Assembly (NCBI GenBank): GCA_945875435.1
Contig: CAMCKH010000010.1
Span: 1 to 38,964 of the forward strand
Source of the DNA: an uncultured Erysipelotrichaceae bacterium
GTDB taxonomy: Bacteria > Bacillota_I > Bacilli_A > Erysipelotrichales > Erysipelotrichaceae
DNA: 38,964 bases
Direction of reading: 5' to 3'
A model generated the notes under the pieces. That model made no database searches. It was given only the letters and a program-made list of their open reading frames with translations, and was not told the DNA's origin. The position numbers were made by a program, and so were the translations under genes. Below are positions 31,292-37,755 of this stretch, in pieces. The stretch's first letter is position 1; the number at the start of each line of letters is the position of its first letter.

Positions 31292-31300
31292 ATTATATCA
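31292..31300 (-). promoter_or_regulatory. Extended -10 promoter of csp, built on the comFC stop codon
   Basis: On the - strand, TGATATAAT (31300-31292) is an extended -10 element (TGnTATAAT). Its TGA is exactly the stop codon of comFC (31300-31298). No good -35 sits 17 bp upstream, as is usual for extended -10 promoters. The leader is about 14 nt and carries GGAGAG. Confidence 0.7.
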
Positions 31301-31912
31301 CACTTTTTGCCAAAAGCTATTATATGAAATAATTAGTGCTTTTGTTTTAATGTTTTTTAACTTTAAAATCTTGTAACAAGCCATAATTGTAGCAGAACTA
31401 GTAACAACATCATCAACTAATAATACTTTTTTGGGTATTTTAATATTTTCTTTTAAAAATATGTGGTTTTTAATTTTAGCTCTATCTTTAAAATTCAAAT
31501 TATTTTGATTATAATTCCCATCTTTATAAAATAAATCTATTTTTTCTAATTTTAATTCTTTAAAAATCATTTCTAAATGATTAAAACCTCTTCTTTTAAA
31601 ATTGTCAAAAGAACTTGGAACGTAACTGATAGTGTAATTAAAATATTTTAATTTTAAATACAATAATTTATCTCTAATAAAAACAGGGTATAGTGCTTCA
31701 TCATAAAGTTCTTTATAACTTAAAAGCAATAATTTAAAATTTTCTTCATATAGATAAAAACTTTCAACCTTTAAATCTTCAATTAAAAAATTTTGTGGTT
31801 TAAAAACTAAACTACTCCGACATTTTTTACAAAGACAATCATCATATACTAAATATTCAAATAAATTTAGATTGTGATATAAAAAATCATCACATTTTAA
31901 ACATCTTTTCAT
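31298..31912 (-). CDS. comFC: ComF family protein (phosphoribosyltransferase fold)
   Basis: A 204-residue protein. An N-terminal zinc-ribbon-like Cys set (CLKCDDF ... DDCLCKKC) is followed by a phosphoribosyltransferase domain with the PRPP motif VLLVDDVVTSSATIMAC and the upstream YVPSSFDNFKRRGFNHLEMI region. ComFC is needed for natural transformation in several Firmicutes, although the family is also kept in non-competent species. No comFA or hpf partner is adjacent; in B. subtilis comFC is near yvyD. The start has no Shine-Dalgarno sequence and lies about 50 bp after the ATPase terminator. It ends in TGA. Confidence 0.88.
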   Translation of the reverse strand: MKRCLKCDDFLYHNLNLFEYLVYDDCLCKKCRSSLVFKPQNFLIEDLKVESFYLYEENFKLLLLSYKELYDEALYPVFIRDKLLYLKLKYFNYTISYVPSSFDNFKRRGFNHLEMIFKELKLEKIDLFYKDGNYNQNNLNFKDRAKIKNHIFLKENIKIPKKVLLVDDVVTSSATIMACYKILKLKNIKTKALIISYNSFWQKV

Positions 31913-31945: not shown

Positions 31946-31976
31946 AAAAAAAGATGAATTAATTTTAATTCATCTT
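31946..31976 (-). terminator. Terminator of the P-type ATPase, overlapping its last codons
   Basis: A 12-bp perfect stem, AAGATGAATTAA (31951-31962) with TTAATTCATCTT (31965-31976), and a 2-nt centre; the - strand continues TTTTTTT. The 5' arm in the RNA includes the last sense codons (Met-Asn) and the TAA stop of the ATPase. Confidence 0.88.
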
Positions 31977-34580
31977 AGTATTTAATTTATTTTTATAATA
32001 TTTTGCGATTTCTACAATCACTAACGGAATTAAAGATAAACCGAAACATATAGCTAATCTATCAAGAGAAAGCGGAACTAAACTGAAAATATCTGCTAAG
32101 AATTTAACTTCTGAAATTATAAGCAATGTAATTAATCCAAAAGCCGCAGCCATCAATAAATACTTGTTGTTAAAGGCTCTCTTATTTAAGATTGATTTTT
32201 CACTCTTGATATTGAAACTATGTACTAGTTGTGAAGTGCTTAAAGTGATAAACGCCATTGTAACACCTGTTTCTTGATTTAAGTTACTTCCAATAATGAA
32301 GGCGATTAAAGTAAGCATTCCAATCATAATTCCTTGCCAGATAACAGTAATTCCTAAACCGTTAGCGAAGAATGACTCATTTTTAGCACGAGGCGAATCT
32401 TCCATAATATCATCGCTAGCCTCTTCCATTCCTATCGCAAAGGCAGGGAAAGCATCGGTAATTAAATTCACAAATAATAAGTGGATTGGATATAAAGGAA
32501 CTCCTAAACTAAAACCAAATAAACCTAATAAACTTGCAGCAAAAATAGTAAATACCTCACCGATATTACAAGAAAGCAAGAAAGCAACATCTCGTCTAAT
32601 ATTAGCGTAAATTCCTCTACCTTCTTTAATTGCAGAAATAATTGTAGCAAAGTTATCATCAGTTAAAATCATATCAGAAGCACTTTTAGCAACATCAGTA
32701 CCTGTAATACCCATAGCACAACCAATATCTGCAGCTTTTAAAGCAGGAGAATCATTAACACCATCCCCAGTCATCGCAACAACCATATCTAATTTCTTAA
32801 AGGCATTCACAATTCTAACCTTGTGTTCTGGAGCAACTCTAGCATACACTGAAATATGTTTAATTTTTTCAAGTAATTCATCATCACTCATATTGCTTAA
32901 CTCTTTTCCAGTAATCGCAAGATCATTTTCTTTATAAATATTTAATTCTTTTGCGATAGCTTTAGCTGTTGAAAGATGATCACCAGTAATCATTACAACC
33001 CTAACACCACCCAAATTAGCCTGTCTAATAGCTTCTTTAACTTCAGCTCTAGGTGGATCAATTATTCCTACTAGCCCAACAAATGTTAAGTCATTTTCTA
33101 AATTATCGCTACTAATATCAGTAGGTAAGGTTTGGTGATATTTAATTGCTACAGCTAAAACTCTAAGTGCGTTGTTAGCCATTTCCTCATTAACCTTAAC
33201 AGCTTTTTCACTTCCTTCAAAACTAATTGATCTATCTAAAATAACATCAAAAGCACCTTTAGTGATTTGTAAAAATTTACCATCAACTTCAAAAATAACA
33301 CTCATCATTTTGCGATCGCTATCAAAAGCAAGTTCCGCAACTCTTTTGTAACTTTTCTCAAGTTCTTCTTTTTTATCTCCTAAAAGATATGAAGCAGATA
33401 CTAATGAAGTTTCAGTAGGATCACCTATTAGTTTAATTACACCATCTTCTTCTTTAACACTTCCATCACTACATAAAGTAAAATATGAAAGCATTTTTCT
33501 AATATCTGAATTTACATTTTTATCAAAATCAACTAAACCACTCTCAACATCATAAGCCTTAACAACTGTCATTTTGTTTTGAGTAAGTGTACCAGTTTTA
33601 TCGCTACAAATAACACTACAAGAACCTAAAGTTTCAACAGCAGGTAGTTTTCTTACAATCGCATTTTGTTTAACCATTTTATTAACACCTATTGCTAGAA
33701 CAATGGTAACCACCGTAGCAAGAGCTTCTGGTACTGCCGCAACCGCAAGTGCTACTGCAGTTTTAAAAGATTCTAAAATATTTCCATTATTGAAATATTC
33801 CATTACAAACACCACAAAACAAATCGCAAAAGCCATATAGCTTATGATATTAGATACCTGTGATAATTTTATTTGAAGAGGGGTTATTTCTTTTTCGCTA
33901 TTAACGATATAACCAGCAATTTTACCAACTTCATTATTCATACCAACACTAGTAACAATAGCTTTAGCTCTTCCGTAAGTACAAATAGTTGAAGCGTATA
34001 TCATATTTTTACGATCGCCAATTCCAACATCTTCTCCATTAATTGAGTCACTTGTTTTCAATACAGGTAAAGATTCTCCGGTAAGAGAGCTTTCATCAAC
34101 TTGGAAATTAAAAGCCTCAATAATTCTAGCATCTGAAGGAATATAATCTCCAGCTTCAATAACGATAATATCGCCCACTGTAACTTCTCTACTTGGGATT
34201 ATTAATTTTTCACCATCTCTAATAACTTTTGAATTAGGAGAACTTAATTTCTTTAATGCTTCTAATGATTTTTCTGCATTATTTTCTTGATAAGTTCCTA
34301 AAATCGCATTAAAAAGAACCACTATAAAAATAATTAAAGATTCTAACCACTCATGCGGATCTATTAATACTGAAATAATAGATGCGAGCATTAAAACTAT
34401 AATTAAAGGATCAGTGAATTGCATTAAAAATTTCTTAAAAATGCTTTCTTTCTTTTCTTCGCTAATTTCATTGTAGCCATAGATTTTTAAATTATCTACT
34501 GCTTGAATTTTAGTTAAACCATTAAATTCATTTGAATTTAATTCTAATACTACTTCTTCCTTAGTTTTGTTATAAAACAT
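31965..34580 (-). CDS. P-type cation ATPase (Ca/Mn type), probable manganese exporter
   Basis: An 871-residue P2-type ATPase. In order: actuator TGES (167-170), M4 PEALATVV (from 284), phosphorylated Asp327 in CSDKTGTLTQNKM, nucleotide-domain KGAFD, hinge TGDGVNDSPALKAADIG, M5 SCNIGEVFTIF and M6 VNLITDAFPAFAIGME. These are SERCA/PMR1-like, the class moving Ca or Mn. The upstream yybP-ykoY riboswitch senses Mn, and a comparable pairing is known for Lactococcus YoaB, so Mn efflux is the best inference; Ca transport cannot be excluded. I start at 34580, where AAGGAGGT precedes the ATG; an ATG at 34595 lies upstream of that site and would put the site inside the gene. Confidence 0.9.
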   Translation of the reverse strand: MFYNKTKEEVVLELNSNEFNGLTKIQAVDNLKIYGYNEISEEKKESIFKKFLMQFTDPLIIVLMLASIISVLIDPHEWLESLIIFIVVLFNAILGTYQENNAEKSLEALKKLSSPNSKVIRDGEKLIIPSREVTVGDIIVIEAGDYIPSDARIIEAFNFQVDESSLTGESLPVLKTSDSINGEDVGIGDRKNMIYASTICTYGRAKAIVTSVGMNNEVGKIAGYIVNSEKEITPLQIKLSQVSNIISYMAFAICFVVFVMEYFNNGNILESFKTAVALAVAAVPEALATVVTIVLAIGVNKMVKQNAIVRKLPAVETLGSCSVICSDKTGTLTQNKMTVVKAYDVESGLVDFDKNVNSDIRKMLSYFTLCSDGSVKEEDGVIKLIGDPTETSLVSASYLLGDKKEELEKSYKRVAELAFDSDRKMMSVIFEVDGKFLQITKGAFDVILDRSISFEGSEKAVKVNEEMANNALRVLAVAIKYHQTLPTDISSDNLENDLTFVGLVGIIDPPRAEVKEAIRQANLGGVRVVMITGDHLSTAKAIAKELNIYKENDLAITGKELSNMSDDELLEKIKHISVYARVAPEHKVRIVNAFKKLDMVVAMTGDGVNDSPALKAADIGCAMGITGTDVAKSASDMILTDDNFATIISAIKEGRGIYANIRRDVAFLLSCNIGEVFTIFAASLLGLFGFSLGVPLYPIHLLFVNLITDAFPAFAIGMEEASDDIMEDSPRAKNESFFANGLGITVIWQGIMIGMLTLIAFIIGSNLNQETGVTMAFITLSTSQLVHSFNIKSEKSILNKRAFNNKYLLMAAAFGLITLLIISEVKFLADIFSLVPLSLDRLAICFGLSLIPLVIVEIAKYYKNKLNTKMN

Positions 34581-34594
34581 AATACCTCCTTGCA

Positions 34595-34709
34595 TAATAA
34601 AAACCTATATTAATATAGGTCTCATCATTTAATATTAAATCAGGTTAAAACCGTATTGTTGACTTAATAACCATTAAGGTTGATTACTCCCCTACGACTA
34701 ATCATAGTA
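34595..34709 (-). promoter_or_regulatory. yybP-ykoY family manganese riboswitch with expression-platform terminator
   Basis: Read on the - strand, the leader has the conserved elements TAGGGGAGTA (34694-34685), AGTCAACAATACGG (about 34664-34651), ACCTG (about 34645-34641) and GAGACC (34623-34618). TAGG near the 5' end can pair with CCTA at the 3' end to form P1. The 18-bp palindrome ACCTATATTAATATAGGT (34620-34603), followed by TTTTATT, is an intrinsic terminator. Its 5' arm shares ACCTA with the aptamer's closing strand, so the two structures exclude each other. Mn binding should stabilise the aptamer and allow transcription of the ATPase. Confidence 0.9.
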
Positions 34710-34715
34710 ACAATA

Positions 34716-34744
34716 ATTGTATCAAATTTTTTTATTTTATACAA
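34716..34744 (-). promoter_or_regulatory. Promoter of the Mn riboswitch/ATPase unit
   Basis: On the - strand, -35 TTGTAT (34744-34739), a 17-bp spacer and -10 TACAAT (34721-34716). Predicted start near 34709, directly before the aptamer. Confidence 0.75.
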
Positions 34745-34747
34745 TTT

Positions 34748-34768
34748 AAAAACACCGCAAAGGTGTTT
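34748..34768 (-). terminator. Terminator of rpmF
   Basis: A 7-bp stem, AAACACC (34750-34756) with GGTGTTT (34762-34768), and loop GCAAA. On the - strand a TTTTTAAA tail follows. The stem overlaps the rpmF stop (34767-34769). Confidence 0.82.
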
Positions 34769-37329: not shown

Positions 37330-37755
37330 ATGATTAAAAAATTAAACAATTATCTTGCAGATTTAGTGGTATTTTATCACAAACTACAAAATTTCCATTG
37401 GTATGTTAAGGGAAGTAGTTTCTTTACCGTTCACGCAAAATTAGAAGAACTTTATGATGAAATAAGTGAAAATATTGATGAAGTTGGTGAAAAAATATTA
37501 ATGCTTAATGCAAAACCTGATGGAAATTTAAAAACTTTCCTTCAAAACAGCAACATTCAAGAAGCTGCTAATGAATTTTTAAGCAGTGATGAAATTATCA
37601 AACAATTACTAAAAGATTACGAATATTTATTAAATTCAACTAAAGCTATTAAAGAAAGTGCAGATGAAGAAAATAACTATTTAATTTCTGCCTTTATCGA
37701 TACTCAAATTGAAAAATTCTCAAAAACTATTTGGATGTTGAAACAAAGTTTATAA
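37330..37755 (+). CDS. dps: Dps family ferritin-like DNA-protection protein
   Basis: A 141-residue four-helix protein. The ferroxidase signature is in place: FYHKLQNFHWYVKGSSFFTVHAKLEELYDEISENIDEVGEKI, with the inter-subunit His and the downstream Asp/Glu ligands typical of Dps/MrgA. It oxidises and stores iron with peroxide, protecting DNA. The size is normal for Gram-positive Dps. GGAGGT lies 7 nt before the ATG. It shares a bidirectional terminator with the convergent flavodoxin gene. Confidence 0.92.
   Translation: MIKKLNNYLADLVVFYHKLQNFHWYVKGSSFFTVHAKLEELYDEISENIDEVGEKILMLNAKPDGNLKTFLQNSNIQEAANEFLSSDEIIKQLLKDYEYLLNSTKAIKESADEENNYLISAFIDTQIEKFSKTIWMLKQSL

What the first reader, a model, noticed from the sequence alone, without database searches (positions are those of the whole stretch)
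31965..34744. Manganese riboswitch (yybP-ykoY class) assigns a substrate to a Ca-type P-ATPase
The leader at 34595-34709 on the - strand has the conserved GGGGAGTA, GTCAACA, ACCTG and GAGACC elements. A perfect 18-bp terminator palindrome shares ACCTA with the aptamer's closing helix. That geometry is a transcriptional ON switch. Sequence alone would label the ATPase 'calcium-transporting', but the riboswitch points to Mn efflux. Established: yybP-ykoY RNAs sense Mn and can precede P-type ATPases. Inferred: the function of this gene.
Basis: partly seen in the sequence, partly recalled or inferred. Interest (0 to 1): 0.6.

Follow-up and report, generated by a model that had tools for sequence, protein, structure and literature searches.

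The report
Manganese-sensing RNA switch before metal-pump gene
The stretch of RNA before this bacterial metal-pump gene belongs to a known family of manganese-sensing switches; it probably lets the pump be made only when manganese builds up, so a gene that would be labelled 'calcium pump' is probably a manganese (and perhaps also calcium) exporter, much like a system already proven in pneumococcus.

Summary
The - strand leader at 34615-34695 folds as a yybP-ykoY (Mn2+) aptamer: L1 GGAGUA/GAGA, covarying helices P1.1 and P1.2, an 8-nt L3 loop with the metal-binding adenosine, and a terminator whose 5' arm is the 3' strand of P1.1. Rfam's own model (RF00080) does not detect it. A covariance model built only from leaders of orthologous ATPases in other genomes does (55.3 bits, E 7.6e-16), and that model also finds the validated Mn riboswitches of E. 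coli mntP and alx. The same leader occurs in 86 of 98 related genomes, most often before this ATPase (62 of 143 leaders examined) or the Mn exporter mntP (36); in one genome it heads an mntP-ATPase operon. Nascent-RNA folding supports a transcriptional ON switch. Mn efflux is well supported by association and by the S. pneumoniae mgtA and L. lactis yoaB precedents. 'Mn rather than Ca' goes too far: the pump keeps SERCA-like Ca ligands, its genome has no other Ca exporter among the families searched, and the three-way-junction pneumococcal switch also binds Ca2+. This is a new member of a known kind. A side observation, that two L3 loop subtypes sort by regulated gene, may be new.

The parts
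34716..34744 (-). tentative promoter TTGTAT-N17-TACAAT (8 of 12 consensus matches), which would put the RNA start near 34709
   Evidence: read from sequence; the consensus scan at 9 of 12 found none, so weak
34691..34695 (-). P1.1 switch helix, 5' strand GUAGG
   Evidence: pairs with 34615-34619; the equivalent helix covaries in relatives: 5 of 5 pairs with two-sided changes
34685..34690 (-). L1 5' side GGAGUA
   Evidence: invariant in all 23 aligned relatives
34681..34684 (-). P1.2 5' strand AUCA
   Evidence: pairs with 34624-34627; equivalent helix covaries, 3 of 3 pairs
34670..34680 (-). P2 hairpin ACC-UUAAU-GGU
   Evidence: sequence and energy evaluation
34661..34669 (-). P3.1 5' strand UAUUAAGUC
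   Evidence: 9 bp with 34633-34641
34653..34660 (-). L3 loop AACAAUAC; C at position 3 and A at position 4 correspond to X. oryzae C47/A48 and L. lactis C40/A41 (metal-binding A at 34657)
   Evidence: residue roles from PMC6754395 and PMC9190785; position mapping is mine
34643..34652 (-). P3.2 hairpin GGU-UUUA-ACC
34633..34641 (-). P3.1 3' strand GAUUUAAUA, preceded by bulged U at 34642
34624..34627 (-). P1.2 3' strand UGAU; UUAAA linker (34628-34632) in place of a P4 helix, hence a three-way junction
34620..34623 (-). L1 3' side GAGA
   Evidence: AGA invariant in 23 relatives
34615..34619 (-). P1.1 3' strand CCUAU, shared with the terminator 5' arm
34599..34620 (-). intrinsic terminator: palindrome ACCUAUAUUAAUAUAGGU (34603-34620), then U tract
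   Evidence: sequence and energies; analogous overlapping hairpins in 92 of 139 leaders by a strict test
34584..34591 (-). ribosome-binding site AAGGAGGU
   Evidence: sequence
31965..34580 (-). P2-type cation ATPase, 871 aa from ATG 34580 (ORF-finder start 34595)
   Evidence: Pfam and NCBIfam; nearest solved relatives Listeria LMCA1 and human SPCA1

Best explanation
The leader is a yybP-ykoY-class Mn2+ riboswitch of the three-way-junction type that controls the ATPase by transcription antitermination. When cytoplasmic Mn2+ rises, Mn2+ in the L1-L3 pocket (using A34657) stabilises helix P1.1 (34691-34695 with 34615-34619). This sequesters the 5' arm of the terminator, RNA polymerase reads through, and the P2-type ATPase is made and expels Mn2+, and quite possibly Ca2+ too. 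At low Mn2+ the terminator wins. Shown here: the aptamer anatomy, its conservation and covariation, the P1.1/terminator overlap, and the association with this ATPase and with mntP. Inferred: Mn2+ binding, antitermination in vivo, and the transported ion.
For: A model from 23 relatives, window excluded, hits 34611-34702 at 55.3 bits, E 7.6e-16; the next window hit is 13.1 bits. It also finds E. coli alx (E 6e-5) and mntP (E 3.6e-4) leaders. P1.1/P1.2 covariation: 8 of 8 pairs with two-sided changes, score 0.703 versus 0.250 in shuffles and 0.239 or less in slid controls. RF00080 itself hits the leaders directly upstream of orthologs in G017 and G032. 86 of 98 related genomes carry the leader. 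Of 143 leaders examined, 62 precede this ATPase family and 36 precede mntP. One relative (G058) has leader-mntP-ATPase. In the ATPase tree the window lies in a supported clade with 18 of 19 leader-bearing members. RNA ending before the terminator 3' arm folds to the aptamer with P1.1; the full RNA folds to the terminator. The own genome lacks MntP, CDF, TerC, Nramp and Na/Ca exchangers and has only two P-type ATPases.
Against: RF00080 misses the window leader altogether. No ligand binding or expression was measured. The terminator is A/U-rich (2 G-C pairs) and P1.1 has only 5 pairs. No strong sigma-70 promoter. Transport-site residues do not separate leader-bearing from leaderless pumps and resemble SERCA, so sequence alone does not say Mn. 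Genome 96% complete; UPF0016 and MneA exporters not searched.
Confidence: 0.82

Rival explanations
1. Same riboswitch class, but here it mainly senses and serves Ca2+: the aptamer responds to Ca2+ (alone or with Mn2+) and the pump is chiefly a Ca2+ exporter.
For: S. pneumoniae mgtA aptamer, also a three-way junction, binds Ca2+ with higher affinity than Mn2+ (PMC9495176 citing Martin 2019). The window pump keeps SERCA-type ligands: N and E in M5, N-x-x-T-D in M6, E in M4, Q in M8. The genome lacks Na/Ca exchangers, so this pump may be its only Ca exit. In relatives the same leader precedes Na/Ca exchangers (25 of 143).
Against: The class is established as Mn2+-responsive, activation of mgtA by Mn2+ is stronger than by Ca2+ (same review), and 36 leaders precede mntP. 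The window L3 loop is of the AACA subtype typical of mntP leaders.
Confidence: 0.13
2. A riboswitch-like leader from a different or degenerate class: an ordinary attenuator with chance motif matches.
For: RF00080 gives no hit to the window.
Against: Independent model E 7.6e-16, covariation, conservation before orthologs across at least two families of the order, reciprocal hits to E. coli mntP and alx, interior fold beats 1970 of 2000 shuffles.
Confidence: 0.03
3. Regulation is translational rather than by termination: the palindrome acts as a spacer or RNA-stability hairpin.
For: Terminator stem is A/U-rich with 2 G-C pairs; the consensus scan did not score it as a terminator (which demands 3 G-C pairs).
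Against: The RBS (34584-34591) is not sequestered by any predicted stem. The hairpin overlaps the P1.1 3' strand and precedes a U tract. Terminator-like hairpins of -6 kcal/mol or lower overlap P1.1 in 88 of 139 leaders versus 11 of 139 with shuffled downstream sequence. The related S. pyogenes leader accumulates as a 113-nt terminated RNA (SSRC10, PMC3675131).
Confidence: 0.08

Closest known systems
yybP-ykoY (Mn2+) riboswitch upstream of S. pneumoniae mgtA (formerly caxP), a Mn2+/Ca2+ PII-type ATPase (Martin et al. 2019, cited in PMC10543277, PMC11434433, PMC9495176; original paper not held)
   Same: Riboswitch of the same class, three-way junction, in front of a P2-type 'calcium' ATPase; Mn raises expression
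   Different: Different lineage; the pneumococcal locus also has the CDF exporter MntE, whereas this genome has no CDF; window L3 is AACA type, the streptococcal SSRC10 consensus is GUCA type; no biochemistry for the window
yybP-ykoY riboswitch upstream of L. lactis yoaB (PMC9190785, PMC11087558, PMC9495176)
   Same: Transcriptional ON switch with P1.1 competing with an overlapping terminator; yoaB product implicated in Mn2+ efflux
   Different: L. lactis RNA has helices P1-P4; window has no P4; L3 subtype differs
E. coli mntP and alx Mn riboswitches
   Same: Same L1 and L3 core; recognised by the model built from this clade
   Different: In front of other exporter families; different expression platforms
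Rfam RF02617 SSRC10 'sRNA' of streptococci (PMC3675131)
   Same: Weak full-length match of the window leader including its terminator (E 0.015); lies before a 'putative calcium transporter' gene
   Different: Catalogued as a trans-acting sRNA candidate
Listeria LMCA1 (lmo0841) P2-type Ca2+-ATPase
   Same: Best solved-structure match to the window ATPase
   Different: Lies in a different subclade; lacks the M5 Glu and M6 Thr, and has Arg in M8 where the window has Gln

Membership tests
yybP-ykoY (Mn2+) riboswitch | Rfam RF00080 covariance model at gathering score | tested here: not met
   No hit in window even at E 10. The model also scores E. coli mntP below its cut-off and does not list alx, so a miss is weak evidence against
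yybP-ykoY (Mn2+) riboswitch | Homology to experimentally validated members | tested here: met
   Model R1 from clade leaders hits window (E 7.6e-16) and E. coli mntP and alx leaders; RF00080 hits orthologous leaders in relatives
yybP-ykoY (Mn2+) riboswitch | L1 loop GGAGUA opposite GAGA, between P1.1 and P1.2 | tested here: met
   34685-34690 and 34620-34623; flanking helices covary
yybP-ykoY (Mn2+) riboswitch | L3 loop with invariant metal-binding adenosine between P3.1 and P3.2 | tested here: met
   AACAAUAC, CA at positions 3-4, 9-bp P3.1; roles of the adenosine from PMC6754395
yybP-ykoY (Mn2+) riboswitch | Four-way junction with P4 | tested here: not met
   UUAAA linker instead of P4. Three-way-junction members are accepted (S. 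pneumoniae mgtA, PMC9495176), so not disqualifying
yybP-ykoY (Mn2+) riboswitch | Mn2+ binding and Mn2+-dependent switching | not testable with these tools
   needs in-line probing and transcription assays
Transcriptional ON expression platform | Terminator 5' arm overlaps the P1.1 3' strand; aptamer favoured until the terminator is transcribed | tested here: met
   fold of 34700-34611 versus 34700-34596
P2-type (PII) cation ATPase | Cation_ATPase N, E1-E2, HAD and C domains; DKTGT; PE(A/G)L in M4; N-x-x-x-D in M6 | tested here: met
PMR1-type or SERCA-type Ca ATPase (NCBIfam equivalogs) | score above curated cut-off | tested here: not met
   652 of 798 and 643 of 703 bits: no established substrate subfamily applies
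Mn2+ exporter | Mn2+ transport | not testable with these tools
   only association evidence

The most novel reading that the evidence does not exclude
The yybP-ykoY class contains two L3 subtypes that sort by regulated gene and may be tuned to different metals or concentrations. AACA-type loops precede mntP (33 of 36 here, also E. coli mntP). GNCA-type loops precede Na/Ca exchangers, CNNM/CorC, phosphate and citrate transporters (38 of 44 non-ATPase, non-mntP leaders; E. coli alx is also GNCA). In genomes with both, the contrast holds in 13 of 14 pairs where the mntP leader is AACA. The window's ATPase carries the mntP-like AACA loop, so loop subtype might predict whether a given 'calcium' ATPase is Mn-tuned or Ca-tuned.
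Probability: 0.2. Interest if true: 0.65.

Novelty: new member of a known kind. Interest (0 to 1): 0.38.

Why it matters
It gives a testable substrate for a pump that automated annotation would call calcium-transporting, in a reduced genome with no other recognised Mn or Ca exporter among the families searched. It also shows that Rfam's current Mn riboswitch model overlooks almost a whole order: 86 of 98 genomes carry the element, while RF00080 rings in 8 and in none above its cut-off. Mn-regulated genes in these bacteria are therefore largely unannotated. The L3 subtype pattern gives a concrete way to ask whether these switches distinguish Mn2+ from Ca2+.

Tried and rejected
RF00080 on the window at gathering and at E 10: no hit; rejected as a refutation because RF00080 also underscores E. 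coli mntP. Other Rfam hits in the leader (STnc370, snoR01, cow-rumen-4 and others) rejected as chance; RF02617 SSRC10 kept as informative. Genome-contig scan with the ATPase returned one 42% identical archaeal-MAG gene and no close relatives. Transport-site residues (M4, M5, M6, M8) compared between leader-bearing and leaderless pumps: no residue separates them, so substrate cannot be read from them. A regex leader detector mislabelled loci and a first structure parser missed the window because of a wrong anchor; both were replaced. The second own-genome R1 hit (13.6 bits, E 0.9) was rejected as chance. Martin et al. 2019 was not held, so its content is taken from reviews.

Full report
WHAT IS THERE. 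On the - strand, between rpmF (L32, 34770-34910) with its own terminator (34750-34768) and a P2-type ATPase gene, lies a leader of about 110 nt. The ORF finder starts the ATPase at 34595, but AAGGAGGT at 34591-34584 and ATG at 34580 make the latter the likely start (871 aa, inference).

ANATOMY. The RNA folds as P1.1 GUAGG/CCUAU, L1 GGAGUA/GAGA, P1.2 AUCA/UGAU, P2 ACC-UUAAU-GGU, P3.1 UAUUAAGUC/GAUUUAAUA, L3 AACAAUAC, P3.2 GGU-UUUA-ACC, with a UUAAA linker where P4 would be, so a three-way junction. With the L1 anchors fixed, the interior parse beats 1970 of 2000 shuffles. In the L. lactis and X. oryzae crystal structures Mn2+ is held by five phosphates and N7 of an invariable adenosine in L3 (A41 and A48; PMC6754395, PMC9190785). 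Aligning loops by position puts that adenosine at position 4 of the 8-nt loop, A34657 here; this mapping is mine.

IS IT A MEMBER? I tested the point independently. Orthologs of the ATPase were found in relatives and 23 of their upstream leaders aligned without the window. RNAalifold found only P1.1 and P1.2, 8 pairs, all with compensatory changes. The controlled count gives 94.6% paired cells, covariation 0.703 against 0.250 (shuffles) and 0.239 or less (slid). A covariance model from these 23 (R1) hits the window at 55.3 bits, E 7.6e-16, with the next window hit at 13.1 bits. R1 also hits the leaders of E. coli alx (21.9 bits) and mntP (19.6 bits), annotated Mn(2+) exporters with Mn-sensing riboswitches reported upstream (PMC9603457), and ATPase leaders of Lactococcus piscium, Enterococcus raffinosus, Lactobacillus intestinalis and Lentilactobacillus buchneri. 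RF00080 itself weakly hits the leaders directly upstream of the orthologs in G017 and G032. On E. coli mntP it scores 41.6, below its own cut-off of 45, and does not list alx. Membership is therefore well supported and the RF00080 miss is a weakness of that model.

DISTRIBUTION. R1 matches 86 of 98 related genomes (RF00080: 8, none above cut-off). I fetched and read downstream of 143 leaders including the window: 62 P2-type ATPase, 36 MntP, 25 Na/Ca exchanger, 10 CNNM/CorC, 3 Na/Pi cotransporter, 3 CitMHS/ArsB-like, 2 flotillin, 1 PHO4 phosphate transporter, 1 unassigned (classes by BLAST to Pfam-identified representatives). In G058 one leader precedes mntP followed by the ATPase. In a tree of 80 P2 ATPases the window sits in a supported clade of 19 with 18 leader-bearing; one separate clade is leaderless (quick search, midpoint root for drawing).

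MECHANISM. The terminator 5' arm (34620-34614) contains the P1.1 3' strand. RNA ending at 34611 has the full aptamer with P1.1 as its minimum-energy fold (-14.7 kcal/mol); the full RNA prefers the terminator (-20.5). Evaluated singly: aptamer with P1.1 -12.3, core plus terminator -12.9 to -15.9, before any metal or tertiary stabilisation. This matches L. lactis, where P1.1 is the switch helix and its 3' segment partitions to the terminator without ligand (PMC11087558). Terminator-like hairpins overlapping P1.1 (-6 kcal/mol or lower) occur in 88 of 139 leaders against 11 of 139 shuffled. The S. pyogenes SSRC10 'sRNA', 113 nt, ending in a Rho-independent terminator and lying before a 'putative calcium transporter' (PMC3675131), looks like the terminated product of the same class.

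SUBSTRATE. No NCBIfam equivalog cut-off is met (PMR1-type 652 of 798, SERCA-type 643 of 703). Nearest solved relatives are Listeria LMCA1 and human SPCA1. The window pump keeps the M4 Glu, M5 Asn and Glu, M6 Asn/Thr/Asp and a Gln where SERCA has site-I Glu908 (SERCA roles from general knowledge). LMCA1 lacks the M5 Glu and M6 Thr and has Arg in M8. No residue separates leader-bearing from leaderless pumps. The 96%-complete genome shows no MntP, CDF, TerC, Nramp or Na/Ca exchanger, and just one other P-type ATPase, a heavy-metal-like SPC type. S. pneumoniae mgtA is the precedent: a Mn-induced PII ATPase with a yybP-ykoY leader (PMC10543277), described as Mn2+/Ca2+, with a three-way-junction aptamer that binds Ca2+ more tightly but is activated more by Mn2+ (PMC9495176 citing Martin 2019; original not held). 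C. difficile and L. lactis have the same arrangement (PMC11477304). I conclude Mn2+ efflux, probably with Ca2+.

SIDE OBSERVATION. L3 loops fall into AACA and GNCA types. mntP leaders are AACA in 33 of 36, other non-ATPase targets GNCA in 38 of 44, ATPases mixed (19 AACA, 34 GNCA, 5 other). Fisher p is 7e-16, but leaders travel with their genes, so this is not independent evidence of function. E. coli mntP is AACA and alx is GNCA, and alx too is reported Mn-responsive (PMC9603457), so GNCA does not simply mean 'calcium'. The window is AACA. No paper on a calcium riboswitch was found.

VERDICT. A genuine, previously unflagged member of a known riboswitch-pump pairing. Riboswitch class near certain, ON mechanism likely, Mn efflux likely, Ca not excluded.

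Noticed in passing
98 related genomes, e.g. L100, L070, L054, L117, L163: The Mn-riboswitch-like leader precedes, besides ATPases and mntP, Na/Ca exchangers, CNNM/CorC, Na/Pi and PHO4 phosphate transporters, CitMHS/ArsB-like permeases and flotillins. CNNM, phosphate, citrate and flotillin targets are ones I do not recall being described for this class.
   Followed up: partly
143 leaders; E. coli mntP L243:462-558, alx L244:2370-2503: Two L3 loop subtypes (AACA and GNCA) sort with gene class, mntP being AACA in 33 of 36.
   Followed up: partly
Rfam RF02617; L126, L212, L214, L240:833-954: The 'SSRC10 sRNA' family of streptococci appears to be the terminated form of this riboswitch; its hits coincide with leaders before mntP and ATPases.
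   Followed up: partly
Rfam RF00080 (release 15): The current Mn riboswitch model is 177 positions, lacks P1, scores E. coli mntP below its gathering cut-off and misses alx.
   Followed up: partly
L081 and L085 (G010:C44:32330-33630): Two leaders about 1.2 kb apart, each followed by its own Na/Ca-exchanger gene: a tandem duplication of switch plus transporter.
   Followed up: no
L153 (G044:C2:451650-454764): A leader-bearing ATPase on a very long branch grouping with human SPCA1, with NIIMDGPPA in M6 like the Ca/Mn pump SPCA1; possible second, SPCA-like Mn pump.
   Followed up: no
window whole genome (G000, 1.17 Mb): No CDF, Nramp, MntP, TerC or Na/Ca exchanger found: an unusually sparse set of divalent-metal transporters.
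   Followed up: partly
window 31298-31912 (-): ORF beginning MKRCLKCDDFLYHN... with CxxC pairs, possibly ComFC-like, no Pfam match.
   Followed up: no
window 37330-37755 (+): Ferritin-like protein gene about 2.7 kb from the ATPase leader.
   Followed up: no
L237:569-638 (Enterococcus faecalis plasmid): An ATPase copy without this riboswitch has a near-cut-off match to the Ref64 sRNA family (RF02847) upstream instead.
   Followed up: no
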